Source: Varroa destructor (Eukaryota > Arthropoda > Arachnida > Mesostigmata > Varroidae). Taken from it: DNA of 64,000 nucleotides. Below the pieces are notes generated by a model. It was not told where the DNA came from. It saw only the letters and a program-made list of their open reading frames with translations, and did not search any database. Shown here piece after piece: positions 3,935-55,700 of the stretch. Both the position numbers and the translations under genes were made by a program. The stretch covers positions 24,365,448 to 24,429,447 of the forward strand of contig NW_019211458.1 in NCBI RefSeq assembly GCF_002443255.2. The letters run 5' to 3'. Every line of letters begins with the position of its first letter. Position 1 is the first letter of the stretch.

Positions 3935-4236
3935 CTGGAATTTAAATGCACAGGTCCAATACTATTGAGTAACTTGCGCGACAAAAGCCAATCAGCGACA
4001 CAGACTAGCTCTTCTTTTCGTGTGAAATTATCGTCTACCCCTCTTTGTGTAAGATTTGTAAAGCGGATTGTAATTATATAGCGCAACTTTTTTCACTTCA
4101 ACTTCTAGAGGTTATAAACATATATCTAGTAGCTGCACTATACGACGAATGTATATAATGACAACAGAAATAGCCAAAACTCTTGTACGCTTTAAGCTGA
4201 ATGCTTTACGATAATACTGCATTACAAGTAACTTAC

Positions 4237-4582
4237 AGGATGTACATAAGGACACCGGCGCTCCACACATCTGCAGCATACGTCACCAGTTCACCGTGCA
4301 CCACTTCCGGCGCCATATATTCAGGTTCGCAGTCCACAACGATACGGGCACCTTCTTTGGGCACAGCGTGGGTTGATCCAAAGTCAACCAGTTTGACTAT
4401 ACATGACTGGCCGTCGGTCACACAAACTGAGTCAGGTTCAACGTTGCAATAGACAAGCCCCTTGAAGTGAAGATACTCAAGAGCGTCGAAGACCTGTTTC
4501 ATTATTCGCGATACCTGGTCTTCACTATAGGTGTTCCGTAGCGTTAGGAAAGCCAAAATGTTCATTGACAGGCGCTCCATGA
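4237..4582 (-). CDS. unc-89: UNC-89 kinase 2 middle exon (predicted pseudokinase)
   Basis: Encodes MERLSMNILAF, the alpha-E helix (MKQVFDALEYLHFKGLVYCN) and the catalytic loop YCNVEPDS, where HRD is replaced by YCN and the following Lys by Glu. DFG is kept (VKLVDFGSTHAV), as are APE (YMAPEVVHGE) and the alpha-F motif (AADVWSAGVLMYI). In nematodes this second kinase retains Asp here. Insect Unc-89 kinases are reported as inactive, so loss of the Asp in this gene fits the insect situation. Acceptor TTTTACAG, donor CT/GTAAGT. Confidence 0.93.
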
Positions 4583-4793
4583 CTGTAAAACAATAAGTAT
4601 TAATAATGTGCCTGCTAATGTAAGCAAACTACTCTAGTTGCTTAGTGATGAACGTTAGCTGAGTGACGCAGTTAGTGGCACTCAGGACAAGTTCAAGTCT
4701 TGCATAGAAATCGTCCTGTGTATTTCGAAAATTGTTAATTAAGTATCTTATTAATATTAGATGTAAACGAGCGTGGCATTCGGGATAAATATT

Positions 4794-4812: not shown

Positions 4813-4919
4813 TAGGTAAGTTAAAATTCTTGAATATTTCGAACTGTCGTGACGAAAATTATCTAAATTCAATTGAAAGTTTGCTGTGAAGCTTCACACC
4901 CAGCATTCAGTGAACTCAC

Positions 4920-6090
4920 CCAGCATGGTTACATCCCCGGCCTGGTAGGCGTCTTCTAGGTAGACAATGTTTCTATGTACAAGTCCTTTCAACATATCAT
5001 ATTCGTGCCTGCCATTCTTGACGGCTTTTACTGCGATCAAGCGATTGTTGGCCTTCACCGTACCCGACATGACAACTGAAAACCGACCGGAGCACAGTTC
5101 AGCTGAAAAGTTGTAATCGTTCTTGATATCCGAGGTTTTCAGTTCGATCGGATTCTGCTCGCGAGAATAGTCATGAACGGGAGCTGATCCGACGGCGATA
5201 TCGGTGGTTTGTACCTGCTGGTAGCTGTGGGTTGGGCTAAGCTTGATTTTGTTAGTGCTATCTGCCGCTTCGGTGGCCACAGACTTTGAGGCATCCGACG
5301 TGACGGAGTTACCAAACAAATTTGTCGCTATTACTCGGAACTCGTACTTCGTGGCAGGAATAAGATCCTCAAGGATGTAGAACTCATTGGTGATCTTTTC
5401 TGGGATTTTGGTCCATTCTGCGGCCGTTGCCAGCTTGTACTCAAGAGTAAAGTATAACGTGCGAGCATTATTTTCCTGACGAGGAGCGTTCCACTCGATA
5501 TACATTTGTCTCGCTGTGGCTTGAACCACCCTGGGTGCAGCCGGTCTTCCAGGGATATCTCCTATTCGAAGACGGGCTCGGCATACAGCAGTGCCCGAGG
5601 CATTCCGTGCAACGCATTTGAACACGCCCGCGTCATAGGCCATACCTGGTGCCAGGGTTAACGTCGAAATGCCAGCAGCTTCATTAGTATCAATCTTGAT
5701 ACGAGACGTGGGTATTAGTGGACAATCGTTACGGAACCAGGTGAACTGAGGAGCTGGGATTCCGACAGCAACCGCATGGAAGCTCACATTGTTATTATCC
5801 ATAATCACGGCATCGTCAATTTTTTCGCGGAAAAACGGTAGAGTGCCTATAGCCTGTTCCCGGGTTACCCCACGGAAACGCCACGCATTATTGCGAACAG
5901 CGTCAGTTTCGTTCTTAATGTAACCAACAGCACCGACCTCCTTGTTGAGACGGAGCATGATTGATTTGTGATCGTCTCCGCCTTTCTTTTCGTCGTCGAT
6001 CTCCTCATCCATCATATCGTAGAACTTTCGCCTTTCGCGAATCACAACTTGAGGATAGATATGCTCACGCTCCTGACCACGAGCAAAGAT
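4920..6090 (-). CDS. unc-89: UNC-89 linker, Ig25, Fn3 and kinase 2 N-lobe
   Basis: Linker with VVIRERRKFYDMMDE (compare VRERRRYTDIL in nematodes). Then Ig25 (FFREKIDDAVIMDNNNVSFH, core PQFTWFRNDCPLIPT, corner YDAGVFKCVARNASGTAVCR) and Fn3 (GRPAAPRVVQATARQMYIEW, end TKYEFRVIATNLFGNSV). After a flexible spacer comes the kinase 2 N-lobe (LCSGRFSVVMSGTV, Lys in RLIAVKAVKNG, alpha-C HEYDMLKGLVHRNI). The glycine loop is degenerate. Acceptor TTGTTACAG in phase 0, donor CTGG/GTGAGT one base into a codon. Confidence 0.93.
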
Positions 6091-6402
6091 CTGTAACAAA
6101 AAAATGGCAAACTCAAAGCTATCCATAATTTCAGATAGAGGTTCTTATTTGATGCTACATACTAGTTTTAAAGAACTAAATGAACTTGAATAAAATATAT
6201 AACGTTAGGAGTAACGAGAGATCGAGTCTAGCTTGCCATGATAGCACACACTGTACATATGAAATTAAATCTGTGTATCATTAAGCTATAAAGTGTACAC
6301 TAGAGAGTCCCATTTTGGTTTTTACGATTAAAAGAATATATTAAGGCAAGATTAAAGTGAATATTTGCGCGACTGTTGATCGTTTAAATAAGAACTACTA
6401 AC

Positions 6403-6595: not shown

Positions 6596-6814
6596 CTTGT
6601 AATGGATATCGCACTCTGATTCTGTTATATCATAAAATCTATTACGTCCATCGATATCGTTCAATGACTTTGGAGGGGTAAGAGCTTTACAAACAAAGCT
6701 TGGTTGATTTCACATTGGGCAGATATCGTTGCAGCATTTTTGGTTCATCCATCCTCAATTTAGTGAGTTAAATATATTAGATTTAATAAATAATGATAAT
6801 GTTGCGTGACCTAC

Positions 6815-7840
6815 TTCGATTCGTTTTTGAAGTTTTCGGTATCGTAGCCTCGTTTCTTGCGGTCGTTGTCGAACGAGGGTACGACGTGTTGTTTGCGCGC
6901 CGGAGTCTCAGGGAACATAGAAGGTTCGCCTGGGGGGTAGATCATCTTGCTTGGGTCATAGAAGCATGATTCGAGTGTACGCCTACGGAAGCAGGTGCGA
7001 CAGTTAGCATTAGCGTACCATTTCCTCCATTTTTCCTGGTAATCCAGGAGGCGTTCGAGATTAGAAAGTTTCGGGCCCCGGTCTGGCAGATCAGCCATCT
7101 TCAACCAAGGATGGTTGAGAGCCTGCTTTACGTTCAAACGCCCATCGGGCTCGAACACCATAAGTTTAGCAACGAAATCGCGTGCGTCATCGGATACGCC
7201 ATCAAATCCTTCGGGCAGGAAATTCATCTTCCCGTCCTTGATATTAGACAGTGTTTCACGATCATGCTCTCCTAGAAAAGGTGAGACACCGCTGAGTAAA
7301 ATGTAAGTGATAACACCGACGCTCCACATGTCCGATGCTAGGGTGGCTGGCTCCTTTTTGGCCAATTCTGGGGCTACGTACTCTGGATGTCCGTATTCCT
7401 GGATGAAGTTCCTGTCGTTATGAATGCGTGTAGCCAAACTAAAGTCGCTAATCTTGATGTCATCAGCATTGACACGAGCGACAAGAAGATCACCAAGGGT
7501 GAGGCCAAGATGCGCGATACCTCGCTGGTGCATGTAATCCAAACCTTGCAGGGTCTGGCGGATGAAATTGGCGATTTGGCCCTCTGTCACACCTCCTCGG
7601 TGGATGATATTGCTAAGCAGCTCACCTCCTCCGCAGAGATCCATGATCAGTGTCATCGAGTCCTGCGACTCAAACACGTCCCACATACGGCACAATTTGG
7701 GGTGTGCAAGCTGGTTCATCATATCCATTTCGTTCTTCATCCACGTTCTAAACTGCGGATCCGTATGTTTCATCACTTTAGCAGCGTATGAGTTACCCGT
7801 GGCACGCGCAACGGCATGATAAGTGATTCCTTGCGTTCCG
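6815..7840 (-). CDS. unc-89: UNC-89 kinase domain 1 (predicted pseudokinase)
   Basis: Nearly the whole first kinase domain. The glycine loop is completed across the splice (LGRGTQGI). The ATP-binding Lys is present (SYAAKVMKH). The catalytic loop is IAHLGLTLGDLL, so HRD Asp is Gly and the following Lys and Asn are also lost. DFG reads DFS (KISDFSLATR). APE is kept (YVAPELAKKE), as is the C-lobe (SDMWSVGVITYILLSGVSPF). A tail helix and basic stretch follow (RRRTLESCFYDPSKMIYPPG). Loss of the catalytic Asp predicts an inactive scaffold fold. Exon ends at CGAA/GTAGGT, just before an in-frame TAG that would end a read-through form. Acceptor CATTTTAG. Confidence 0.93.
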
Positions 7841-7995
7841 CTAAAATGTTTATAGGTACAAAAACATAACATATGACTATTGCCACTGCTTCTGTTTCCA
7901 CTTTATAAGTGAATATACACCCTGAAGATATGTCATGAGCTATCATATAGGTAAATTAAATACTCGGTCATCGTCAAGAGGTATGATATACTTAC

Positions 7996-9040
7996 CGTCC
8001 AAGTTCATCTCCAAGGTCGTAGTAATCGCTGAGCGGCTTCGTCTTAGAACGCACGACCCGAGGAGCCTTATACGTCGACAGATCATAGAGTTCTTCCTCC
8101 TCTTCAATGATCACCGTTGCCGAGCAAGTAGCGTCGCCGGCGATATTAGTCGCCTTACATGAATAAAGGCCGGCATCACGCATGATCGAATCATCGAGTT
8201 TCATCGTGCACAGATCAGGTTCTTCCCAACTGATCTGAATACGACCCGATGTAGCAATCGGCTGCCAATCCTTATACCATCTGATATGTGGGTATGGCTT
8301 GCCTATGCAGCGGCAGCTCAATACGCCACTCTTGCGCAACAAAACGGTAGTATACTCCAGCCGTTTGGTGAACTGCGGCTCTTCCGCAAGCTTGACCTGG
8401 ATTGATTTCGTCGCCTCGCCATGTTCATTCAGAGCTTTACAGGTATAAACTCCTTCGCAATCTTCTTGCATACGATTGATGCATAGCAATACTTGACCGT
8501 TACGATCCTGGAGCTTCTCGTAACGTCCACCAGACTCAATTTTCTGCTCCTTGAAGAACCATGTGCACTGGGGATGGGGAAGTCCGTACACCCAGAACTC
8601 AATACTAACCGGACGTCCTTTAACGCCGAACATGACTTCCTCCTCTTTGCGGACAAAATAAGGTGCAACTCCTTCCTTATCTAGTCCATGACCGAGGTCA
8701 ATATCTTTTGGTATGAACTCTTTCTCGGGCCGATCTTCCTTTTCTACTAGCTTGCTCCTGTGAGCAGTAACCGGTACCGAAGGTTCGCTAAGGCCATGCT
8801 TGCTTTCTACAAGGACACGGAACTGATAATCCTGACCAGGCCGCAGTCCCTTCACATCAGTGGTAGTATCTTTAATGCCGGATGCATAGGGCTTCCATGC
8901 ACCTCCAGGGTGGTCACACATCTCCACACGATACGTTACAGGTATTCGAGGACCTTTCGGAACGGACGGCTTCCAGCGAAGAGTGCAGTCATAGTCTGTC
9001 ATCCGAATGATATCTGGCGCATCCGTGGCTGGGGGAACGC
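7996..9040 (-). CDS. unc-89: UNC-89 Fn3, Ig23 and Ig24 (before kinase 1)
   Basis: Opens with an Fn3 domain (GVPPATDAPDIIRMTDYDCT, core LRWKPSVPKGPRIPVTYRVE, end GLSEPSVPVTAH). After a charged linker come Ig23 (APYFVRKEEEVMFGVKGRPV, core PQCTWFFKEQKIESG, corner EDCEGVYTCKALNEHG) and Ig24 (PQFTKRLEYTTVLLRKSGVL, core PHIRWYKDWQPIATS, corner MRDAGLYSCKATNIAGD). An acidic linker LYDLSTYKAP runs into the first residues of kinase 1 (YDLGDELG). The same Fn3-Ig-Ig-kinase order occurs in nematode UNC-89. Ends at GGACG/GTAAGT, inside the glycine loop codon. Confidence 0.93.
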
Positions 9041-9144: not shown

Positions 9145-9151
9145 ACAATAA

Positions 9152-9189
<38 letters not shown>

Positions 9190-9198
9190 GGTTATTGT
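9145..9198. repeat. AT microsatellite inside a perfect inverted repeat
   Basis: Arms ACAATAACCTA and TAGGTTATTGT (11 bases, perfect complement) flank an AT dinucleotide run in the intron just upstream of the Fn3 exon. It can form a long hairpin or cruciform. Confidence 0.85.
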
Positions 9199-9438: not shown

Positions 9439-9618
9439 CTGTGTCAGGGCGGAGGTATTTAACAACGCTGGGCTTTTCTCCGTCGAATGTTGGCCTCTCG
9501 AAACCGAAATCGTCAGTATCACTGTGTTCGTCGTCGTCATCTGAAACGTTGCTCTCGACAGGCTTTTTCAGGCCCGGTTTTGGCTTCTCCGAGAGTTGGT
9601 AGTTGAGTTTCTTCCAAG
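9439..9618 (-). CDS. unc-89: UNC-89 linker exon before Fn3/kinase module (2)
   Basis: Encodes WKKLNYQLSEKPKPGLKKPV, an acidic SDDDDEHSDTDDFGFE and FDGEKPSVVKYLRPDTG, joined to the Fn3 exon. The acceptor follows a strong pyrimidine tract (TGGTCCCACCCCACATTTCG...CTGCAG). The open frame extends further upstream, but that part is intron. Nematode UNC-89 has a similar short linker with FNGEID at this point. Confidence 0.82.
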
Positions 9619-10022: not shown

Positions 10023-10097
10023 CTGGCTTTTCGTTATCCTTCTTCAGGTGCTTGAAATCGGTAGCTGGGGAAGTAATTGATGTCTTGTCAATGGCAG
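10023..10097 (-). CDS. unc-89: UNC-89 linker exon before Fn3/kinase module (1)
   Basis: A 75-base exon encoding AIDKTSITSPATDFKHLKKD and NEKP. Acceptor AAAATGCAG, donor CCAG/GTCAGT. Two bases in, one out. It is the in-phase partner of the donor at 19057 and of the exon at 9618. Hydrophilic linker with no domain. The acceptor tract is weak. Confidence 0.75.
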
Positions 10098-11389
10098 CTG
10101 CATTTTGAAGTACACCCTATATATGCGTATGTATGCGTGCCTGCGTTTTTTCTATTTTCTCGTTATTTGTTATTGATTCTATTTCGCACAGCGTTTGTAT
10201 TTTTTTTCTTTTCTTTTCCAGACTAATGGTCTGCCAACACAAAAAATAAGAGGAAAAGCCCACGGCAAGCAGCTTAAAGGCATCGTTATTCGCTAGAAAT
10301 ATCTCACTGTATTAACGTCCTGATGCTTTTACATCGTAGCCAGGATACGGGCAGTTAAGGCAAACCCCGGACTCTGACATATATCTCGGTCTCGTCGTCG
10401 TTTGGGTTGGACTACGATTCACGGCGCTCATGACCACCATAAGACTCTTATCTACCCTAAATACAAGCGTTACCGATATGTTCTCATATTCCTCGGTTGT
10501 ATCAGAATGACATGTAAGGCACGGATTGTTTTACGTTTGTCTTGAGAGTGCAAGGTAATAGGACGAGCATGACATCTTTTGATGGCCAACCAGCGGCGGT
10601 GACAGCTATCATTTGCTAATTGCTTCGTGCAAGTCAGGTCCGCAAACCATACGAGGCCGACGGCCGTGCGCACCTCGTTTAGCTGCGTACTTATTAGTTG
10701 TAAGCTGACTATCCCTATGATGTCCCTATCAGGGGCATCCTCAACTTCGGTACCATTCTTAAAAAACCATATATCAAGATAGTCAAGAGATGTAGAGAGA
10801 GATAGACAAGATAGACAAAGGCCATACTAAGAATGTGCTTTATTCATTACGTATACTTCCGGCAAATATACTTTTTGAAAACAAGTAGTCGAGTACAGCG
10901 AATGATCATCACTTGCGTGATGACAATGATTCATTATCATTGACGTAAAGTGTGCTGTGAAGATTGCATCACATGGTCCATTTCGGCTTATTGATTGTTG
11001 TTTTTATTGTTGATGTCGCTGCTGTTCGATGTCGCCGTAGTTGTAACACTCGCTTAGCAAATGCGATTCTTATGCCTATTAGTTAGCTCTAAGTAGCAGT
11101 TAAGTTAAAATCGCGACATTCAGTGCCGCTGCGAGGTCTCCCCAACAGGCCTAACAACGAGCAGATTACCAGGAAGACATAATGTCAAGGATATCGGAAA
11201 CAGCTACTCTCTCAGGCAAGTGAGAGAACAGAGGAAGTTTAAGGACAGAAGATTTTGACAAGAAGAGAAGCTGTTCTTCGCCCAGAGTGGTAAGTGATAA
11301 TGAACTAATGGGTGATGCATCGTAGCGACACGCATGCCGGGTTCCTTGCCCCGTTCACGAGCGTTGGTCGCGGAAACCCGTGGATCGAC
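10098..11389 (-). other. unc-89: intron downstream of duplication, nothing recognised
   Basis: The rest of the intron leading to the linker exon at 10097. AT-rich, with TTTTCTTTTC-like pyrimidine stretches near 10200. No coding segment supported. Confidence 0.55.
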
Positions 11390-13069
11390 CATATATATAT
11401 ATGGGTATCTATCATAATGCGAAGCATATTGACACAAGACATCACAAGTAACTCTAAACGCAACATTCGCGGATGCCCTGACCGCACGGCCCGGTCATAT
11501 ATAACAAATATATACACACAATACACCAGTTATTTCAGATGGTCGAGTCCGTGATCCGCACCAACGTTTCGCCGCAGGGCCGCACGCAAGCCACGCAGCC
11601 AGAAAGATAGAAAATTGAAACAATGCCGCGACAAAGGTTAACAAAAAATGGACAGCGGGAAGCCCGTCCGGTAGGGTCGTGCAGTCAAGGCTCGCGAAGG
11701 CCTCTGTTGCGGAAATCGCATAAGAAATAAACCAAACTGGGCATTCCTGCGTGATTTTCGTCAAAAACTGAATATTGGATGTGTATAGATATATTGGTAA
11801 TGTAATAATGCGGCTTCCTGGCTGCGGATGCGAGTCCTGCGGACCTCAGTGACGCCGCGGCGACTCACCCATTATATGCACTTCGGTTGCATGCAATGTC
11901 GATCGGATAGAAGATCTGCCTAAATGTGAACAACTCGGTCATCGTCTTCAGATGGTACGATTAATTACACTTGCTCTATCTTGAAACTGGTATTATACTT
12001 GCAAGCCATCTATTCGCTGCTACTGCTACTCCCCATTCCCCCAGAACATGGATTATTATTAGTAGGTAAAAAATCCATCCTATTCTATGATTTTTATTTG
12101 CCTTTCGAGTATTAACAGTCACAATGATTATGATCATTAGAAGAACAACACGGGTTCAGGCATTAGATTTCGTATACGAGGTTCACGCTATCGAGGTGAG
12201 TGCCCCTGCAGAGTACAGAATTCTTCTTAAAATTGTTTTCTTAAGCGTTTACGTCATCGTCTTTGCAACATCTCCTGCGGGCGCATTTCTATACAAGGCT
12301 GAGACCTAGATTGGCGATAAATTCGTCGAAACCCCTGTCAGAAGAATCGTCTCCACCCCCGTGGCCTAGAAAGCCCCACCTATTCAAGCTCACGGTTAGG
12401 GATGAGTAAACTTGGTTCATACATAGGCAGACCATACAAGTTACCATAATCGTTAATAAGGATCGTGCATACATTGCCAATGGCTCGATCGAATCTATGG
12501 CATGATCATGGCGTTCAAGTTCTATTTTTTCAATTAGTGATGGGATATTTGGTAACGGTGAAACGGTCCATTTTTGCTGCTTATTCGATTCGGTATCTGC
12601 GACAGACACAAGACGTGCGTTTTATGGCATGGTCGATCGACCTTGTTCTTTGTGGGACTTCGCCTCATACTGCATTCGCACCTCGTGCGTTATTGGCCCC
12701 TCTCCTTGAGGCTCCTCATATTCTGTACTTCGTTGACGAAAGCGGACCTGTACCGATGGCGCGACGAAGCGTTCAAGCACAGTACGCTCGTCCATCTGTG
12801 AGGCATACCCGTCAGTATCATAGTTTCGCCGTGTTTCCGACGGCGACCGATAAAATTTATCGAAAATTTTGGCAAACTATTCACGCCTAGTTTCAATCGA
12901 ATCGAATCGTTTGGTAAACGATGTTCCCGCCTTCGCATCTACACTTCCTGCGTCACTGCCTGTTACATCTCACTGAGAACCGCTTGAGTCACGCTCATAT
13001 TTCAGAGCGGGAGTCTCACTTAGTTCTTCGCCCTTTTTGCCTTTTCGGCACACGGAGTTGCTTTCTGAC
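11390..13069. repeat. tandem duplication, copy A (decayed)
   Basis: The partner of 13070-14736, head to tail with no spacer. It includes the equivalent of the composite exon end, but TAG at 12877-12879 replaces a CAG codon. The tail frame (ADTESNKQQKWTVSPLPNIP onward, through LLTIMVTCMVCLCMNQ) ends early at 12289. It lies in the intron between Ig22 and the linker exon. Confidence 0.88.
12289..12938 (-). pseudogene. decayed copy of composite exon 3' end
   Basis: A pseudo-exon within duplication copy A. It shows recognisable coding sequence, including the hydrophobic segment and GHGGGDDSSDRGFDEF, but has at least two premature stops relative to copy B and no upstream frame. No longer usable as the terminal exon of unc-89. 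Confidence 0.75.
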
Positions 13070-13759: not shown

Positions 13760-13765
13760 TTTATT
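13760..13765 (-). promoter_or_regulatory. unc-89: poly(A) signal of composite terminal exon
   Basis: AATAAA on the minus strand about 145 bases after the stop at 13908, which supports the idea that a transcript ends here. A matching AATAAA is kept in the duplicated copy near 12085. Confidence 0.5.
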
Positions 13766-13907: not shown

Positions 13908-16900
13908 TTAAGCGTTTGCGTCATCGTCTTTGCAACATCTTTTGCGGGCGCATTTGTATACAAGGCCGAGACCGAGATTGGTGATAAACTCGTCAAAATC
14001 GCTGTCAGAAGGGTCGTCATCACCCCCGTGGCCAGGAAAGCCCCGCCTATTCAAGCTCACGGTTAGGGATGAGTAAGCTTGGTTCATACATAGGCAGACC
14101 ACACAAGTTACCATAATCGTTAATAAGAATCGTGCATACGTTGCCAATGACTCGATCGAATCTATGGCATGATCGTGACGCTCAAGTTCTGTTTCTTCAA
14201 CTAGTGACGGGATATTCGATAACGGCGAAGCGGTCCATTTTTGTTGATTATTCGATCCGGTGTCTGCGGCGGACACAAGATGTGCGTCTTGTGGCGTGGT
14301 CGATCGACCTTGTTCTTTGTGGGACTCCGCCTCATACTGCATTGGTACTTCGTGCGTTATTGGCTCCTCTCCCTGAGGCTCCTCACATTCTGTACTTCGT
14401 TGACAAAGACGGACCTGTACCGATGGCGCGACGAAACGTTCAGGTATAGTACGCTCGTCCATCTGTGAGGCATACCCGTCAGTATCATAGTTTCGCCGTG
14501 TTTCCGACGGCGGCCGATAAGACTTATCGAAAATTTTGGCAAACTGTTCACGCCTAGTTTCAATCGAATCGAATCGTTTAGTAAACGGTGTTCCCGCCTT
14601 CGCGTTTACACTTCCTGCGTCGCTGTCTGTTACATCTGACTCGAAACCGCTTGAATCACGCTCATATTTTAGATCAGGAGCCTCACTTAATTCTTCGCCC
14701 TTTTTGCCTTTTCGGCGCACAGAGTTGCTTTCTGACTCGCTCGAATTATTACGTGCCTGGTGGCTGTCGTTCCTAAATGCTTTCCTATTTTGATTTGGAG
14801 ATCCGGCTCGAGGAGGCGAAGCCTTGGAAGGAAAGCCAGGTTCTTCATGTCGTCGGGCTTCAATCAGTTCTTCGACGTGTTTGCTCATCCTTTCGCGTTG
14901 GTTTCTAAAAGCTTCAGCATCGGAATCATCAGTTTCACTTGCGTATCGAGCATATTGAGCGATACTCAATCTGTTTTCCTTCTTACTCGATATTGTACCA
15001 CCAGCAGGTCGAACCTTGGCGCGGACTGAAGGCGTACTAGATGCTACTTTGCCAACTTTTTCCAACTGAATAACCTCCTCTAATTCACTAGCGTAGTTCG
15101 CTGTTTGAGGCAGCCTAGTTCGATCTACCCACTCGCTCGGCGTCGGATATCTTTCAGCTTTGGGTTCAGAGGCGTAGCGGGCATACGTCGCAATGCTTAT
15201 CTCTTCCGTACCGTTCATTTGCTTCAACGTTCGTTTTTGGCTTTTTGGTGAACGTGTTCCCTGGGGCTCTACGTCCGTGGTGACTTCTGAGTCATTGCAA
15301 CGCTTAGAATACTCAACAATACTCATCGTTCGTTCTTTCACCCCTGGAGACAGATGTTGCTGAGGGTGATACGAGTAGTGTTTTTCCTCTTCTGGAATGC
15401 TTTCGGCATCAGAGACGCCACTGGCGTACTTGCTGTACTCTGAAATGCTCAGCTCTAAAGATACCACCTCATCGCTGCGTTTGGATGGACGCTGTCTTGG
15501 TAGAGGCTGTGGCTGCTCGGAAGGCCGGCATATATCTACGTCAGATTCTGCGTCACTCGCGAACCTCGCATACTTAGCGATACTCAATCGATGTTCGTGG
15601 GCCTCGCTCAATGTACGTTCCTGGTGTCCTGCATCGATTACACCTTGTTGCGTAGCTTCTGTTTTACCATGAGCAGTTTGGCCTGTCTGGCAACCTTCAG
15701 CGTCTGAGCTGCTCGCGTAGCGACTGTACTCCGCAATGCTTAGTTCATTCTTATTATATTTGATAGCTGTTCTAGAGTCAGCGGGGGAACCAGCTGTTTT
15801 AGTAATCACAGAACGACTTCGAATGATTTCGGCATTTTCTGTGTTCTTTAATGTTTCCGCTGATTCAGCGTCGGATTCATTCATATACCTGGTGTAGGCA
15901 GCAACGCTTGACTGACCATCAAGTGTCTGACCTGACCGCACATGTTTACCCAAAGGCCTCCTAGAAGGGGGAAACTTGTCATCTAATGAAACTGCAGAGG
16001 CCGTTTTTGGCCTTCCCTGCCTAACTTGAGGTTGAGTTTCTACATCCGACTCCACTTCGCTGGCGTATCTTGCGTAAGCGGCTATGCTCATACGACCAAT
16101 CGATTCGTGCTGACAATATAGCTTTTTTACGTCTTGCGTTTCGTCACGTATTTGTGGAATAGTTGTTTCAACGTGACAAGTCGTCACACTAACGTCAGTT
16201 GTTTTCGTTTCCGGCTCGGTATCACTAGCATATTTTGCATATGCGGCAATGCTCATAAGACCATCGTCAACTGGGCGTGATCTGGTAGAAGGCCTCGATT
16301 TCGGCTCTTTGTTTTCCGATGCTTTTATTTGCTCACATGGATCGTGTCTAGTCTCTTTCAGCGGCGGCTTCATAGATCCTGCACGGCTGATCTCCGTATC
16401 AGATTCCGCTTCGCTAGCATATCTGGAATACGCGAATATGCTCAATTCTGTCTGTGCATCTAGTAAGCTGCTTGAAGTGTTTTCTGAATTACAACCATAT
16501 TTTATCGTTGTAGTTGCAGAGGGTACCCTGGATTTATCTGCGGATTCAGTTACCCCATGAGCCTTCTTTGGCTGTCTAGGAATGAACAGCTCAGCGTCCG
16601 ATTCGGCTTCACTAGCATATTTCGAGTACGCCGCGATGCTCACTTCATCAATGAAGTCGGGAAATCTCAGATCTTGCGAATCACTATGATCACTTATTTC
16701 TTTGATAGACATGATCTGGTTTGCGCTTTGTTCCTTCGACTGATCTGTCCCCGTCACTACAATTTTAATTTCTTGGCTAACGTTATTAGGTGTAACAGGC
16801 TCTTCGATTCTTATGAATTGGTCATTATCTTCACCTTCATAGGTAATTACCATTTTGCTGCTCTGCTCAATTACGAGCTTTGGTATCACTCTTCGAGGTA

Positions 16901-19233
16901 CGAAGAGCTCGGCATTTGATTCAGTTTCACTGACAGTTTCTGAGGAGGTACTTCCGATTGTAGTGGCACCTTTTTTTTCAGCAAAACCTTTCCTGGGAGC
17001 TCGTACTTGCTGTACTTCTAGTTCCAGTCTCTCCGAGCTTTCGATTAGTTCGGTGATGACTGTTTTCTTAGTTTTCTTGTCAAGAATAACCTTGAATTTC
17101 GCTTCTACATCAGTTCGACTTCCTTCGTCATCGGCTGCATAATCGTATGACATTTTAAGCACTTTTCGTGCCGCCTCCCTACGCTTCCTATCGAACTCAT
17201 CAGACTCTGCTTCTGACTCGTTACTACTAACGTAGCGTGAATAGGCTGAAATGCTCAGTTCATTATTAGCGCGTAAATCGGCGTCGTCAGAGTTTGCGCG
17301 CTTCTCGGAGTGATCTGTCAACACTGTTTTTACTGCCACTGGCGACTGTTCTTGGGAGCGTTTCTCAGCAAAGGCCTCTTCCAGAAGATTTTCTTTTTTG
17401 AGAGAGGCCCGGGGTTCCTTTTTTTTTACGGATGAACCTCTAACGGGCAATGCAAACCTTGTAGCCATATATTCCGTTTCAGATTCGTCTGTCCCACTTG
17501 CATATCGGCTATACGCCCCTATAGACAATTCTTCATCCAAGGCGCTGTCTGGTTGTAAAGATATGTATGGCATTAAGCTGACATTTTGCAAGATTGATTT
17601 TTCGACGGCTGCAACGGCCTGTTTTGGCGCCTTAACATAGAAACTAGTAGGTTCGTAATCCTCACTGCATTCATCGCACTGCAAATACGGTGCGATACTT
17701 TTCTGGTCATCAGGCTTGTCCTGTTCGTAGACGTGACGGCTCGGTCGTGAAGGTTTAACAGTTTGTTGTTCAGTGACTACATTCAGGTCTTCCTCCCGTA
17801 CACCGCTGTTATTACGCGAGTACGCTGCAATGCTAATCACCTCATTTCCACATTCAACAATTACTTCCTTCAATCTTTTTGCATGGGTGTCTCGATTATT
17901 TGGCTCTATGTCGGAATCCTCATTCTCGCTGGCGAATCGAGCATAAGCTACAATACTCATCGAACTATCCTTGGCTTCTTCCGAAGGTCGCTGTTTTCTT
18001 AACGACCGGCTCGGAAGTTCTTGGCGTCGCAATGGAGCTGCTGTGCATGCCTCTTCACTTTCGCTCGCGTACTTGGCATACTCTGAGATGCTCATCGTCT
18101 TTTCGCGCGAATCAAATGCTGGACTGGCGGGAGACTTCGGGCTAGAAGATTTGTTTCCTTTTTTCTTTGTTGATGAAGCCCTTGGCGGAAGCTTTGGCCG
18201 ATGACCCTCGTCTTCGGTCTCATTCGCATACTTTGAATAAGCCGCTATGGTAAGTTCGACAGTGTCGTCATAATCCTCTAGAGAGCGCTGTTTGCGTTGC
18301 TTCTTCTTGACTGATGAGCATCGCTGAAAAAGGGTGTGGCCAGGGTTTTTTTCTGGTTCGCCTGGTAAACTTAAGACCGCTCGGTAGTAGTCAGCGATGC
18401 TCGGCTCATTCGTACCACTTATCTTGGTTGGGACAAGGTCGCTGGTCACTGTACAATGTTGCTTTCTTTCCTTCTTTTTTTGAGATGAGCCACGCGACGG
18501 TAAATCTGGAGGAGATCCGTGCTTGCGGTGCTTCCTCTTCCCTGACGAACCTTGGCAAGGCAGGCAGTCGCTACTGACTTTAGTTTTGGGTAGAACGTGT
18601 CGATAGTAGTCGAAGATACTAACCTCCTTTTCGTTACTCTGCGTTAGATTGTTCGATGGGTTGTCTTTCATGCTGATTAACCGCGTATTCAACTTTCGAC
18701 TTCCCAGACTATTGCCGTCAACCTCAGCGTCACTCAGGGCGGAGCGATAATGTCCAGAAAAACTATTTTCAGAATCCGTTCGCGTGGCATGAACAGTGTT
18801 CCCTGAGCTATTTACAACAAACAAACATTCTGACCGAGATTCTTCCTCAGTGTTAAGCGGACGTTTACGGTTAGTATTTGGATCGGGATCAACTGTTCTA
18901 TTACTGACGTCATCATTACGAAAATTTGGCATGCTCTTAAGACACTCGCGGTAATATGCGGAGATGCTAATATTACTGCCTTCAACAGATAAAGCATCTT
19001 GATTAGTGCACAAATTGTTATAATCATTATCACGCTGGGCGAACCAATTGAGCTTACAGTCTTCGCTGAGCTTGCAAGAGCAGTCGGCCTTTCCGTGCGG
19101 ATTGGAGATCTCGCAGCGATACTCCCCAAAATCGCGCTCAGTGAGATTCTGAATGACGAGTCGAATAATGCCGTTACGGTCACGCTCAAAGCTGTGTCTA
19201 TCCGTTAGCGCCACGTTACTTCCGTCTTTGTAC
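13908..19233 (-). CDS. unc-89: UNC-89 composite terminal exon: Ig22 half, motif repeats, membrane-like tail
   Basis: If the donor at 19057 is not used, the frame continues without a stop for about 1,715 codons to a stop at 13908. It begins SEDCKLNWFAQRDN and holds about 21 copies of a motif close to SIAAYSRYASEAESD (for example LSISAYSRYVS, MSIAAYARYASEVESDVE, LSIAQYARYASETDDSDAE), spaced 40-110 residues apart. Between copies lie acidic Ser clusters of CK2 type and basic GSSVKKK-like elements. The end carries a hydrophobic stretch FLLTIMVTCVVCLCM, then 60 mostly acidic residues and CARKRCCKDDDANA. It lacks kinases and Fn3. The size of the frame and the regular motif leave little doubt it codes. 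The isoform assignment and membrane insertion are inferred. I know of no such region in nematode or fly UNC-89. Confidence 0.8.
14073..14133 (-). other. unc-89: hydrophobic segment, putative transmembrane anchor
   Basis: Codons for RFLLTIMVTCVVCLCMNQAY near the end of the composite exon. About 15-17 hydrophobic residues are followed by polar Asn-Gln. The segment follows directly on SIESLATYA, which looks like a last degenerate motif copy. Short for a membrane helix but plausible as a tail anchor. The last 60 residues do not end in the Pro-rich pattern of a KASH domain. Confidence 0.55.
19058..19233 (-). CDS. unc-89: UNC-89 second half of Ig22 (short, spliced form of exon)
   Basis: YKDGSNVALTDRHSFERDRN, then LTERDFGEYRCEISNPHGKA to CSCKLSED. 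176 bases, the normal size of a second-half Ig exon. It ends at GACT/GTAAGC one base into a codon, which matches the two-base start of the linker exon at 10097 (SED-SAIDKTSIT). This splice leads to the kinase-containing protein. The same exon also reads through the donor (see 13908-19233). Confidence 0.85.
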
Positions 19234-19426: not shown

Positions 19427-19561
19427 CATTCGACGTCAGGTTCCGGTTTGCCAGCTATACAGGCAATAAGTTTAGCGGTTGAACCAACGGTAACTTCCTG
19501 GTCGGTCAATTTCTTAAGGAACGAAGGTGGTTCGCCGCTGTCGGCGGCGGCCGCAGGCTCC
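19427..19561 (-). CDS. unc-89: UNC-89 first half of Ig22
   Basis: Short Ala-rich lead (EPAAAADSGEPPSFLKKLTD), then STAKLIACIAGKPEPDVE and TG/GTAAAG splitting the Trp codon. One base in after CATTTCAG. Confidence 0.9.
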
Positions 19562-45170: not shown

Positions 45171-45429
45171 CTTAAGAATCAATTGGTAATCGTTGATGCG
45201 CTGCAATGGCAGCTTGAGATGTTCCTGAATGGTCTTCTCATCTCCAATTTTTTTCGAGAACCTTTCCAGATATTCACGCAGCTCGGGTTCGTCCTTAAGG
45301 AGCTGCTGTGCCTTATGCTCTTGCTCGACATATTTAACATGTTTGTCAAAGTCGCGCTCCATTCGAAGCAACGTCGTACCCAGCTTCGTTGGCTCGCGAG
45401 CGTTGAACTTTATTCCAGTAATTAATTGG
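45171..45429 (-). CDS. unc-89: UNC-89 DH (RhoGEF) domain, exon 2 of 3
   Basis: Middle of the DH helical bundle: GTTLLRMERDFDKHVKYVEQ, then KDEPELREYLERF and the CR3-type motif LKLPLQRINDYQLILK, where the family has LP-x-QR-x-x-Y-x-LLL. Starts with one base of a split codon after TTTGTAG and ends in phase 0 at AAG/GTCAGT. Confidence 0.9.
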
Positions 45430-45910
45430 CTACAAACAATGAAATCAGCCGATCGCTCGTAACCACAGACAAATGATTATACTATATAACACACTGCTTC
45501 CTCTGTTTGATCTTAAATCATCGTCTTTCTTTTGTTTAATCTCACTTGAACATCTGCGTTCGAATTTACTTCACGTGTAGCTAACGAACAATAAATATGC
45601 TCCTCATTCTTCAGTTATGCTTTTTTTTTTTTGTTATTTAGACGAATGTAATGAACAACAGGTTTCGAAAATGTCCTCTAAGGCTGCTTTGTATGTCCAC
45701 GACATTTTTCCACTATGTAATTTCAACGACAAATATATAGCATGCTTACAGAATTCGTTATGATTTAGGTAATTGATAGAAGAATCAAAATTAGACTGTT
45801 GCCTCGGCTGTTCTTGCCGTTATCAGTGTGTGGTATCCCTTATATTAGTATTGGTATCTTTGTATGATATCAGGTGTTGTTCAGCTAAGCTACGCGTGTT
45901 GCTTACGTAC

Positions 45911-46081
45911 TCGTTGTGGAAGTCGCAGATATCCTTGAAATTACAGAACAGTTGGTCTTTAAACTCGCGAAGTCTCTTGGGCATTGCGGGATTGTCCATT
46001 TCTTTCATGTAGTTGTTAACAACATAGAGCATATCTCGGGCAAAGTCCTCTTCTGTCTCAACCAGCTCCTTCACTAATGTT
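45911..46081 (-). CDS. unc-89: UNC-89 DH (RhoGEF) domain, exon 1 of 3
   Basis: Start of the Dbl-homology domain, the catalytic module of Rho-family exchange factors. TLVKELVETEEDFARDMLYV is the conserved first helix (CR1, E-x-x-Y/F type). It continues with a helical segment VNNYMKEMDNPAMPKRLREF and KDICDFHN. The acceptor is ATTTACAG and the donor GA/GTACGT. With that donor, the joined protein aligns with nematode UNC-89 through FHN-DQLITGIKF without a gap. A second GT (TAC/GTAAGC) lies four bases further but would break the frame. Confidence 0.87.
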
Positions 46082-51643: not shown

Positions 51644-52711
51644 TTAGTTGCAGGGAGTTGGCGATTTGCTATGTGAGCTGGGTGACGTTGGCGGGGATTC
51701 AAATCCTAGGCCCGAGTCGCAAGACGGAGCGGTGTCGTACGGTGATTTGCCCTCGAGTTTGAATGGCTCAATGTCCACCTCGGATTCGAAGCTCGTGTCC
51801 GATGGTTTATCTTCTGTTTCGAAAGTTTTCTTAGATGTGTTCTCAGATAGCACAAAACCGTACTCTTTCTCCTCCTCTTTGAGCCGACGATAGTCAAAAC
51901 CAACGTCAAAAATTCGACTTTTATTCTTGACAAACTGCTGAAAGTATTTTTCATCGTCGATTTCCTCTTCGTACTTTTCCAGCAAGCCCATCTCGCGAAG
52001 CTTATTGAGAATCTCGACTTCACCCTCACAATAGCCGAACACGTTTTTCACACGTCGTACGGTGGGCACGTGCAGGCCGGCGATGAACTGCGTGATCACA
52101 TCGTCGGCAGTAATATCTTTCGTGTTTGTAGGTGCACAGAATTGGCTGCTATCCGCCATCGTTTTCTGCTGTGCTTCAAACTCCTTCATCTCCTTGCAAG
52201 TTACCATCTTAAGTTTCACCTCGTATACGTCGTTATCCTGTTTGCCAAACATGTACAAATTGTCTGAAGCGTCCCTTTTTAGTGTATGAATACCACCGCG
52301 AATCATCACCTCGACCTCGTGAGGTATGAAGTAATCAAGAAATCGTGTATCCTCCTTGGTGATCTCAAGCAGCTCTTCTTTAGCAATTTTCGGCCTCTTA
52401 CCTGGATCCAGCACAGGATAAATATATATATCACCAAGTAGAGCCCTATACTTTTTCTGCATTTTCACGTTAAAGTCGTATTCGCTCACCATCAGCTTAG
52501 TGCCATCTTCCTTGATGTACGGATATATAGGAATGCAGTCCTTGTTAATCTCCGATGCGCCAGCTACCCTATCTCGGATAACCATCGACGTTCGCCTGGG
52601 AATGTACGGTATGTAGCTATGGCTGGCGCGTCTTTGCAAGTTTGTCGGAACAGTCTGAGAAGTTGAGTCCGAGGCAGTATCCACGCAGACGCTTCTTTGT
52701 AGCCCTGCCAT
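51644..52711 (-). CDS. intronless 355-codon gene nested in unc-89 intron, function unknown
   Basis: This is an uninterrupted frame from ATG to TAA on the same strand as unc-89, inside the intron between the N-terminal exon and SH3. An in-frame TGA lies about 60 bases upstream of the ATG, so the frame is self-contained. The protein is soluble-looking and charged, with no signal peptide or membrane segment. The first 50 residues are Ser/Arg-rich (RRASHSYIPYIPRRTSM). The middle looks folded (YRALLGDIYIYPVLDPGKRP, then IPHEVEVMIRGGIHTLKR). A helical acidic stretch follows (MGLLEKYEEEIDDEKYFQQF), then a disordered tail with SP/TP sites and a DSGLGFES stretch of the beta-TrCP phosphodegron type. 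I do not recognise the family. No phase-0 donor exists that would join it to the SH3 exon, so I treat it as a separate gene or retrocopy rather than an unc-89 exon. A possible AATAAA lies about 370 bases past the stop. Confidence 0.7.
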   Translation of the reverse strand: MAGLQRSVCVDTASDSTSQTVPTNLQRRASHSYIPYIPRRTSMVIRDRVAGASEINKDCIPIYPYIKEDGTKLMVSEYDFNVKMQKKYRALLGDIYIYPVLDPGKRPKIAKEELLEITKEDTRFLDYFIPHEVEVMIRGGIHTLKRDASDNLYMFGKQDNDVYEVKLKMVTCKEMKEFEAQQKTMADSSQFCAPTNTKDITADDVITQFIAGLHVPTVRRVKNVFGYCEGEVEILNKLREMGLLEKYEEEIDDEKYFQQFVKNKSRIFDVGFDYRRLKEEEKEYGFVLSENTSKKTFETEDKPSDTSFESEVDIEPFKLEGKSPYDTAPSCDSGLGFESPPTSPSSHSKSPTPCN

Positions 52712-55700
52712 TGCCCTGGAGCGATGTGCCTTACTTCGCAGATCAGAGTTATCGAGGCTCGTTCAATTACTAGCTCTACTTATATTCTCAATAATTCGTT
52801 GTGTGGGTTTCCTCGTCTTTGTTGGAGTCCACTTTAAGAATCTGAGATTTGCTAGTGAACATCTTTTGTCGATAGTATATGCTTATGTAACGTTGGGCGG
52901 CTTTGCGAGGGTAAGCGCCTCCATGAAGACAGGGCAAGGGTTAACAACGTCCTTACCGCTTGCACTTGACATTACTAGCCTAGTTGTAACAGTGAGCACT
53001 GGGAAATTAGTCGAAGACTGTAGCCTTGCTTCTTGTAGGCAACTAATGGTAATGCAGTGGAATGCAGGTGCCTGGTCGGGGTCTGCCACGCAAAGAAAGA
53101 TGGGGTGTTGTCGTTATTGTTATCGAAGGTGACTATCAACCCATTGCTGAACAAAATTACCACCTCCCCAATAAAAAATGATAAAGCACGTCGCCTGGTG
53201 TTCCATGACGCAACCAAAGATCGTTTTGTCGTCGAATAAAGGATGCACTCGTTACAAAATACGAGCGTTAGGCGATTACGCTGGCTACTAGCTGATATCG
53301 CCCTAGCCCTCTTTGCTGGAGCGTCTTGAAACGTCAAGTACAATGAGACGTCAGGGCTTGTATAGTACTATATCTGCGTGAAACCCTAGATAACATAGCG
53401 GTTTTTATACTGGAAGCTGGTGCCGTACATTTTGATAGGCATTCCTTGAAGGCAAGGAAATCTGTCTACCAGCTAACGAATGGACACCAGCAAGATTGGC
53501 GACTTCGACTAGGCCGGTCTACGATCAGCAAAGATCGTTCATGATGATTTAAATAGTCGGTCGTTGAAGAATAAGCAATACGCTTTATCATTGTACACTT
53601 CATTCCTTTCGCTGAACTTGTGTTCTCATCAAAGAAAACTGGCGAGTTCCGTCATATCGTCAATTGCCCATTGTAAGCCATGAGAAGTTAGAGACTCGGT
53701 TATATAACGAGCGAGGCTTGCATACAATAATTAAGGAGGAATTTAGCCTAACGTACCGTGACTGTATCGTTTTCCGATTAGTTACAACCTCGCTGTATCG
53801 TAAAACGAACCCTTTTTAGAATAAAGCCAATTCACTTTGAAGACCTGGCTTGCACGAGTTTGAATTTTCGGGTTCACCTAAACCGCAGACTGTTTCAGAT
53901 GGGATCTTCATATAAATGTCACAAATTTTTCATCTTTGCGGCGGCTTCGGATGTTCTTAGTTTATTGTACATTGCATCATTAGCCCTGATTCTAGGCAGT
54001 AACTACGTCTCGCTGAAGGCAGGATGTCACAATAGCGTCATTAGCCAGATTAACAGTGGTTCTTTTCTGGCAATCGTCAACATTATTAAGTAAGAGATTT
54101 TAAGCGGTATTTTGGTAGGTAGAGCTTGTTGCATCTGGTACAGGTGCTAAACGAAACAATGTGCCGGAATAGTTCTCACCGTAATAGTGACAAAGTACCT
54201 GTTCTGCTATATCGCCTTAGAAGATCGCCGTGCAAGATTCGATCCTCATTGAAGCTATGCTATTGTCATTTTGATGAGCTAGAGAACGTGACCTGGTCAA
54301 CTGCTAACGTAACAAAAAGAGTCTGCTACTGGTCGGTCACTTAACTATACGGCACACCATTTAGACTTTCAATTCGACTTAATTTTTCAAACGTCGCTTA
54401 ATCAGACTATATTCGAAGGTCGAATTGGCAATTTCTGACAATATTCTCGCAGCTCTGTCAACTGCCCCGATGGAAAGTACTTGAGGAGATGGTCCTGTGC
54501 AGCAGATCTAATCCTCCAATAACACAGTATTCCTTGTATCAAGGCGATATTCGAGCAAAAACGACGAATGAAGGCGTACGTTTATTTGTCGCCTAGCTCT
54601 GTGTAGAGCTATAAGACGCCTCTAGATCAGTGGGAGCATACAACCAACTGATTCGCCCTATATTGTAATTCGCTGCCTTGCTGAGGGGATCAGCTGGTCC
54701 CTTCCTGGTTAGCTGCACAATTTATACCAAAAAGATAATGACGATACGCAAGGCTAACAGATGCACGCAACGATGTGTCTATTCAGCTCATGTAATTGTA
54801 GTGGTTCGCGGACCTGCTACCTAGGGAGTTCCTAACGTAAATATCTTCAAACGACTGGCCGAGGAATGCACTAGGTGTGAATTTGATGGCAATAACGGAC
54901 AGCGATCTTTTTGTGTGTCGTTGAAAGCCGCAGATACGAACTAGTCTAGTCTCAGCAAGGGTTTACAAGGGAAGGCCACGTAAGTAAAAATATGCGCTTT
55001 TTGAGAGACTTTAAGAATTGCATCTAACGTTTCCTCAAATCATCTGAACATTACCCTGATTACCTGCTGATTTATCTAGATAGACAAGGACACTACACGA
55101 AAATCGTCCATTAAATTGTGATCATTCTTTGCGTCCAATAGAGATATGATTGAATGGCTATGTTGTAGTTACTATTTGCCCGTTCTGTTATTAGATCATT
55201 TTTCGTCTTTTTCTTTTGCATCACTATGGCAAATCTCAGCCTGACAATATGCGTCGCCTGAGACGGCGAGGTCTGAGGTGTGTCGAGACAAGCACTTCAA
55301 ATATCGCCATTGTTTTCAATCATAGCTAACCTCTATCATATGCAGCGATGCGTCAAGCCAGCAGGCGGTGGCATAGCAACTATTAGTAGCGTGCCAAACC
55401 TGAGGGACGTGGCTTACCTTCACTTGAACGCATTGTCAAAAAGATACTACGCTGCTGTTATCTCAACGGCAGCATGAGGTTTCCTTGTTTTTCATTGTAA
55501 TTAGCTTTAGCGCTCGGTATAGGAATATATATTCCTACGCCGAACTACGCATATGCATAATTGACGCATCTGCAAGGCGGCAGCCAGGCATTTCCGGTGC
55601 AATGAAGAGACTTGCACTTACACGCGCGATTACTGAGGTGTTTCTCACCCTCAAGAACCAAATGCGTGCTGAAAAGTCTAGCACTGCGATGCAACGTGTG

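What the first reader, a model, noticed from the sequence alone, without database searches (positions are those of the whole stretch)
13908..19233. Giant read-through terminal exon gives a kinase-less UNC-89 isoform
Seen: a normal 176-base second-half Ig exon ends at a consensus donor (GTAAGC, 19057-19052), yet the frame stays open past it for about 1,715 codons and ends at a stop followed about 145 bases later by AATAAA. Seen: the donor's phase matches the linker exon at 10097, which leads to the kinases. Inference: the locus makes two proteins by choice of splicing versus read-through. One has kinases, the other a huge repeat region and a hydrophobic tail. I know of no such isoform in described UNC-89/obscurin proteins.
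Basis: partly seen in the sequence, partly recalled or inferred. Interest (0 to 1): 0.88.

Follow-up and report, generated by a model that had tools for sequence, protein, structure and literature searches.

The report
Membrane-tailed kinase-less obscurin alternative ending
In the giant muscle gene UNC-89 (obscurin) of what is likely a mite, the reading frame runs on past a splice-donor sequence for 1,716 codons holding 21 copies of a short motif and a hydrophobic tail, which would likely give a version of the protein without kinases that is predicted to tie the muscle filaments straight to a membrane.

Summary
An Ig half-exon (19233-19058) ends at GTAAGC, yet the frame stays open for 1,716 codons to TAA at 13910-13908, with AATAAA 143 bases on. 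Ten random sequences gave 154 codons at most. The frame looks truly coding: it holds 21 copies of a motif (typically LSIAAYSRYAS; at most 2 in 2,000 shuffles), near saturation at synonymous sites. The first motif precedes the first in-frame Met, so translation must enter from upstream. Splicing from the same donor toward the kinase exons also keeps the frame. One donor therefore most likely chooses between kinases and a giant membrane-tailed ending. Unsettled: read-through versus a 60- or 78-nt mini-intron; expression; presence in relatives; membrane topology. Kinase-less obscurins are known (vertebrate obscurin-A; C. elegans UNC-89A/E). The long motif array and built-in membrane segment are what I did not meet in print. 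Best reading: an obscurin-A-like ending that would reach a membrane, probably the SR, directly instead of through ankyrin. A decayed tandem copy of the tail lies at 13069-11387.

The parts
19427..19561 (-). first half of the Ig domain before the choice (exon)
   Evidence: phase 2 join to the next exon reads as one Ig; acceptor ATTTCAG, donor ATG|GTAAAG
19058..19233 (-). second half of the Ig domain, 176-base exon, donor ACT|GTAAGC at 19057
   Evidence: Pfam I-set 9e-7
13908..19057 (-). giant open frame, likely an alternative terminal coding region: 1,716 codons counted from the codon split by the donor, ending TAA
14877..18986 (-). array of 21 copies of a motif, typically (L/M)-S-I-x-x-Y-x-(R/K)-Y-A-S, 17 of the 20 gaps 41-77 residues; the motif is predicted to form a short helix
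   Evidence: 21 matches of [ST][IV]xxY[AYSTL][RKQ] versus at most 2 in 2,000 shuffles; positions and gaps; AlphaFold2 with 20 of the 21 copies: helix 8-18, mean pLDDT 73.6
14130..14159 (-). last, degenerate motif-like stretch (SIESLATYAR) that runs into the hydrophobic segment; not counted among the 21
   Evidence: read by eye
14064..14129 (-). predicted membrane helix (FLLTIMVTCVVCLCMNQAYSSL), 51 residues before the stop
   Evidence: Kyte-Doolittle mean 1.98 over 19 residues, the highest of the region; helix in a low-confidence model
13760..13765 (-). poly(A) signal AATAAA that would serve the giant ending
11387..13069 (-). tandem duplicate of 14736-13067 (exon tail and following sequence with AATAAA), 89.7% identical, four in-frame stops in the tail copy: a decayed copy
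10023..10097 (-). 75-base linker exon of the kinase branch, phase 1-1
9439..9618 (-). 180-base acidic linker exon of the kinase branch, phase 1-1 (acceptor chosen for phase; the AG before 9668 tried first gave a stop)
7992..9040 (-). FN3-Ig-Ig exon running into the start of PK1 (high end = acceptor; low end = stop of the open frame, the true donor lies before it and was not fixed)
   Evidence: Pfam fn3 and I-set
6814..7902 (-). PK1 kinase open frame (HRD reads HLG, DFG reads DFS)
   Evidence: Pfam Pkinase 5.2e-54
4897..6144 (-). Ig, FN3 and start of PK2
   Evidence: Pfam I-set 2.8e-14, fn3 9.1e-9, Pkinase residues 344-408 at 0.0027 (below its curated cut-off)
4233..4628 (-). middle of PK2 (open frame holding the exon)
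   Evidence: kinase motifs read by eye; kinase match at 4233-4514, 1.5e-9
45171..46074 (-). RhoGEF (DH) pieces, likely of the same gene's N-terminal part
   Evidence: PF00621 at 45742-46074 (4.2e-6, two stops inside, as expected where an intron is crossed) and 45171-45407 (1.1e-5), same strand

Best explanation
The UNC-89/obscurin gene here carries, between an Ig exon and its kinase exons, a 1,716-codon open frame that is likely an alternative ending, replacing the two kinases with a long motif array and a predicted membrane segment. When the donor at 19057 is used, the transcript would splice to 10097 (or 9618/9040) and encode PK1 and PK2. When it is not used, or is joined to a very near acceptor, transcription would end at the poly(A) signal at 13765 and give a kinase-less protein. 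I infer that this form works as obscurin-A does in vertebrates, linking the Ig filament at the M-line to the sarcoplasmic reticulum. It would do so through its own C-terminal membrane helix rather than through an ankyrin, with 21 short helix-forming motifs as repeated docking or phosphorylation sites on a flexible spacer. Shown: open frame, phase, motif array, hydrophobic segment, poly(A) signal, kinase exons. Inferred: expression, choice of splicing, membrane insertion, SR as the target. The confidence given covers a kinase-less membrane-linked ending; for the SR in particular it is lower (see the section on the most novel reading).
For: Open frame of 1,716 codons against 130-154 in ten random sequences. 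21 motif copies against at most 2 in 2,000 shuffles. Among 16 of the 21 copies, codons for identical residues differ in 599 of 954 comparisons (63%; 67% expected if drawn independently), and entropy by codon position is 0.72/0.63/1.40 bits: old repeats kept at protein level. The motifs are not seen as DNA repeats. The first motif (aa 31) lies before the first Met (aa 43), 30 codons after the donor. The kinase branch is phase-compatible in four joins tried. Hydrophobic segment 51 residues before the stop. OBSCN has the same gene geometry (PMC11871629 passages). In C. elegans, RNAi against large Ig-rich UNC-89 isoforms (some of which also carry kinases) disturbs SERCA placement, and RNAi against kinase isoforms does not (PMC3388081 passages). 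[quoted passage not shown]
Against: No transcript or protein evidence was available. No homolog of the giant region was found, although could not reach proteins longer than about 3,000 aa. The tandem-copy test of selection on the tail was not significant (31 synonymous changes against 25.5 +/- 3.9, P = 0.089). Phase fit of the kinase branch is modest support: one of its acceptors was chosen for phase, and the last join into PK1 was not tested. The tail model is poor (pLDDT 53.6), and the charges beside the helix, read by eye, do not clearly favour a cytosolic N-terminus. Nothing in the sequence points to the SR rather than another membrane.
Confidence: 0.6

Rival explanations
1. The giant region is an alternative last exon entered through a short intron from 19057 to an acceptor at 18979 or 18997, so no donor is read through. 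The protein is almost the same, and so is its role.
For: Both AGs keep the frame and precede the first motif. The 30 residues between donor and first motif hold no motif copy.
Against: Pyrimidine content upstream is modest (0.67 and 0.60 over 15 bases). 60-78 nt would be a very short intron. The unspliced frame is itself continuous into the motif array, which one phase in three would give by chance.
Confidence: 0.25
2. The giant region is a separate gene or a separate transcript with its own promoter and start codon, unrelated to UNC-89 splicing.
For: It is a long coding block followed by its own AATAAA; 20 in-frame Met codons exist.
Against: The first motif copy lies before the first in-frame Met; the frame is continuous with the Ig exon; 30 codons separate donor and first motif.
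Confidence: 0.08
3. The ending is real and joined to UNC-89, but the hydrophobic tail does not insert in the SR: it goes to another membrane (plasma membrane, nuclear envelope) or is buried in a soluble interface. The motif array is then a docking or phosphorylation array near the M-line.
For: 51 residues after the segment is long for a tail anchor, a Cys/basic cluster (YKCARKRCC) follows, flanking charges are equivocal by eye, and the model is weak.
Against: The segment is the most hydrophobic of the region (19-residue mean 1.98) in a polar, tryptophan-poor protein.
Confidence: 0.3
4. The open frame is a chance or decaying remnant that is never translated.
For: The duplicated tail next to it has decayed with four stops, so the locus does hold a dead copy; the selection test on the tail pair is not significant.
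Against: Frame length, 21 motif copies with near-saturated synonymous sites, and no stop in 1,716 codons.
Confidence: 0.03

Closest known systems
Vertebrate obscurin-A (OBSCN transcript ending at exon 98)
   Same: Kinase-less form made by an alternative last exon lying before the kinase exons; non-modular tail; links the filament to the SR (PMC11871629 passages; PMC12812942 passages and section 8).
   Different: The human tail is about 400 residues and binds small ankyrin-1, part of the SR; here 1,716 residues, 21 motifs and an own hydrophobic segment. Sequence relation of the two tails was not tested.
C. elegans UNC-89A/E
   Same: Large isoforms not listed among the kinase-containing ones; the isoforms use different promoters, splicing and 3' UTRs; large isoforms needed for SR order (PMC3388081 passages).
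   Different: No giant motif array or membrane tail was described in the passages I saw; sequence not compared.
Drosophila obscurin/Unc-89
   Same: Arthropod obscurin with a glycine in the PK1 catalytic motif (PMC10129394 passages); the window's PK1 reads HLG.
   Different: The review says that all four thoracic isoforms contain Ig14-16 and kinase 1 (PMC12812942 passages), so no kinase-less form was reported there.
Junctophilin (recalled comparison)
   Same: Works alike in outline: a long cytosolic protein that would end in a C-terminal membrane helix and hold a membrane to another structure.
   Different: The giant region matches no Pfam family at E <= 10, so no MORN repeats were found.

Membership tests
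UNC-89/obscurin | Ig array with FN3 and tandem PK1-PK2 at the C-terminus | tested here: met
   I-set, fn3 and PK1; Ig-FN3 and PK2 after it, PK2 by a Pfam match below cut-off, a kinase match at 4233-4514 and motifs by eye
UNC-89/obscurin | RhoGEF (DH) domain in the same gene | tested here: met
   two PF00621 pieces at 45171-46074, same strand; that they belong to the same transcript is inferred; SH3 and PH not looked for
UNC-89/obscurin | arthropod-type PK1 catalytic motif with glycine | tested here: met
   AHLGLTLGDLL; glycine strictly conserved in arthropods per PMC10129394; HLG also in P0001, P0003 and P0006
obscurin-A type ending | alternative last exon placed between shared Ig exons and kinase exons, removing the kinases | tested here: inconclusive
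   met by gene geometry and phase; use of the exon is not shown
obscurin-A type ending | ankyrin-binding sites | not tested
   no obscurin-A sequence was compared; binding is not testable here
tail-anchored membrane protein | single membrane helix close to the C-terminus | tested here: inconclusive
   one segment at mean 1.98, but 51 residues follow it; weak model
KASH / junctophilin / other named tail families | match to a Pfam family in the tail | tested here: not met
   0 families at E <= 10 for the 1,716-aa region and for its last 120 aa (HMMER's filters drop most weak matches)

The most novel reading that the evidence does not exclude
An arthropod obscurin isoform that is itself an integral membrane protein: M-line Ig filament at one end, a 1.6-kilo-residue array of 21 docking motifs in the middle, and its own helix in the SR membrane at the other. 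It would do alone what vertebrates do with obscurin-A plus small ankyrin-1.
Probability: 0.4. Interest if true: 0.8.

Novelty: new variant of a known kind. Interest (0 to 1): 0.64.

Why it matters
[quoted passage not shown] A built-in membrane tail would be a direct and testable answer for at least one arthropod lineage. It would also suggest that a kinase-or-tether choice is a shared theme from mites to mammals, whether inherited or convergent. The 21-copy motif is a ready bait for finding its partner.

Tried and rejected
Homolog searches: the 1,716-aa region found none (7,088 candidates, E <= 1e-3; residues 800-1716, the 7,986 candidates sharing most words, E <= 1). This is weak evidence of absence, since only proteins of 0.55-1.75 times the query length are candidates and full-length UNC-89 is longer. 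The same database does hold arthropod relatives of PK1 (700 proteins passed, 120 listed). PDB, viral contigs (two pattern matches, neither a relative), Pfam and NCBIfam gave nothing for the region. In its own genome the region matches only itself and the decayed tandem copy among 5 candidates scored.

Selection test on the tandem copies: a simple count gave dN/dS 0.43, but this is biased by the excess of transitions. Against a null that keeps the change types, 31 synonymous changes compare with 25.5 +/- 3.9 (P = 0.089), and four stops with 2.8 expected. I therefore do not use it as evidence. No indels fell in 829 aligned coding bases against 4 in 839 noncoding; suggestive only.

Structure: the last 120 residues alone gave pLDDT 53.6, so no fold search was made. 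One motif with 20 of the 21 copies as alignment (the copy at 17699 left out; two rows begin with M where the frame has V) gave a short helix, pLDDT 73.6.

Literature: ten searches (two returned no paper, 61 listed 10 of 45). I saw the listings, and passages of four papers: PMC12812942 (also section 8), PMC10129394, PMC3388081, PMC11871629. In these I met no membrane-anchored or motif-tailed UNC-89/obscurin. Most subscription papers are not in that library, so this does not prove it unpublished. Annotation records of mite genomes were not available.
Full report
What is there. On the minus strand, exon 19561-19427 and exon 19233-19058 together read as one Ig domain. The second ends at ACT|GTAAGC. 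Past that donor the frame stays open for 1,716 codons to TAA at 13910-13908, and AATAAA follows 143 bases later with a T run and a GT-rich stretch. In ten first-order Markov sequences of the window's length (one strand each), the longest open frame was 130-154 codons.

Why it is likely coding. The region holds 21 matches of [ST][IV]xxY[AYSTL][RKQ], typically (L/M)SIAAYSRYASEAESD. In 2,000 shuffles of the same residues the maximum was 2. They are 41-205 residues apart, 15 of the 20 gaps being 41-66. Tandem Repeats Finder and a self-BLAST of 9-19.6 kb see no DNA repeat among them. In the 16 of 21 copies with the strict core, codons for identical residues differ in 599 of 954 comparisons (63%), against 67% expected for independent draws. 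Entropy is 0.72, 0.63 and 1.40 bits at codon positions 1, 2 and 3. So the copies are old, and what has been kept is the protein, in the same frame as the Ig.

Why it likely belongs to UNC-89. The first motif starts at residue 31 after the donor, and the first in-frame Met is residue 43. A start at that Met would cut off the first motif, so the frame must be entered from upstream. The frame is continuous with the Ig exon. Two in-phase AGs, at 18997 and 18979, would allow a 60- or 78-nt intron before the first motif, so read-through and mini-intron cannot be told apart from sequence. Either gives a kinase-less protein.

The other branch. The donor leaves one base. Acceptors at 10097 (75-base exon), 9618 (180-base exon) and 9040 (FN3-Ig-Ig exon) all take it up in frame; the four combinations tried stay open to the end of the frame at 7992, just after the first residues of PK1. 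The acceptor 9618 was chosen for its phase after another (9668) had given a stop, and the last join into the PK1 frame at 7902 was not tested, so phase is modest evidence. PK1 follows (Pfam 5.2e-54) with HLG for HRD and DFS for DFG; the glycine is described as strictly conserved in arthropod PK1 (PMC10129394 passages). Ig-FN3 and PK2 follow. RhoGEF pieces lie at 45171-46074 on the same strand, which suggests that most of the gene is within the window.

The tail. Residues 1644-1665 of 1,716 are the most hydrophobic stretch of the region (19-residue mean 1.98). They directly follow a motif-like SIESLATYAR, and 51 residues come after. The model of the last 120 residues shows a long helix over this segment at low confidence. 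No Pfam family matches. Topology and target membrane are not shown.

The tandem copy. 14736-13067 (end of the exon and the sequence after it) is repeated at once as 13069-11387, 89.7% identical. The copy of the tail has four in-frame stops, and the AATAAA is kept at 12098. After calibration the pair gives no significant sign of selection (P = 0.089). It shows a neighbouring, apparently unneeded copy broken at this degree of divergence while the 1,716-codon frame has no stop.

Which animal. The window lies in a 366,193,577-base assembly of 112 contigs. Among the 120 listed matches of PK1 the two best with an organism name are chelicerates (Euroglyphus, Cordylochernes), followed by an insect (Timema) and a spider (Trichonephila). 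The myosin light chain kinase of the mite Tropilaelaps mercedesae matches eight stretches on contig C5 at 4.0-4.05 Mb at 67-92% identity, so this is likely a mite related to Tropilaelaps but another species. The assembly size and the seven contigs on which the matches lie remind me of Varroa; that is recalled, not tested.

How it likely works and what is known. Vertebrate OBSCN has the same layout: obscurin-A ends at exon 98, and obscurin-B skips exons 97-98 and runs to exon 125/126 (PMC11871629 passages). The obscurin-A tail binds small ankyrin-1 and so the SR (PMC12812942 passages and section 8). In C. elegans the large Ig-rich isoforms are needed for SERCA placement, and RNAi against kinase isoforms has no such effect (PMC3388081 passages). 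[quoted passage not shown] I therefore infer that the giant ending is this lineage's SR-facing, kinase-less form, with a membrane segment of its own. The step from hydrophobic tail to SR is the weakest; the step from open frame to UNC-89 isoform is strong.

Novelty. A kinase-less obscurin by alternative ending is a known kind. I met no 1,716-residue motif array with a membrane segment in the listings of ten paper searches or in passages of four papers. The protein searches could not see full-length UNC-89 predictions, so others may already be annotated.

Noticed in passing
11387-13069: Tandem duplicate of 14736-13067 (giant-frame tail and following sequence), 89.7% identical, with four in-frame stops and its own AATAAA at 12098; it could serve as a second poly(A) site.
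   Followed up: yes
4233-4628: PK2 reads YCNVEPDSV where HRDLKPEN-like residues are expected (recalled consensus): the catalytic Asp appears to be Asn while DFG is kept. With PK1 also HLG/DFS (6814-7902), both kinases of this gene may be pseudokinases.
   Followed up: partly
9439-9618 and 10023-10097: Two linker exons of the kinase branch are symmetric (phase 1-1) and could each be skipped without loss of frame.
   Followed up: partly
51644-52762: Open frame of 372 codons on the minus strand upstream of the RhoGEF pieces, no Pfam match; may be the N-terminal part of the same gene or another gene.
   Followed up: no
9145-9198: 54-base near-perfect palindrome of TA repeats between the linker exon at 9439-9618 and the FN3 exon.
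   Followed up: no
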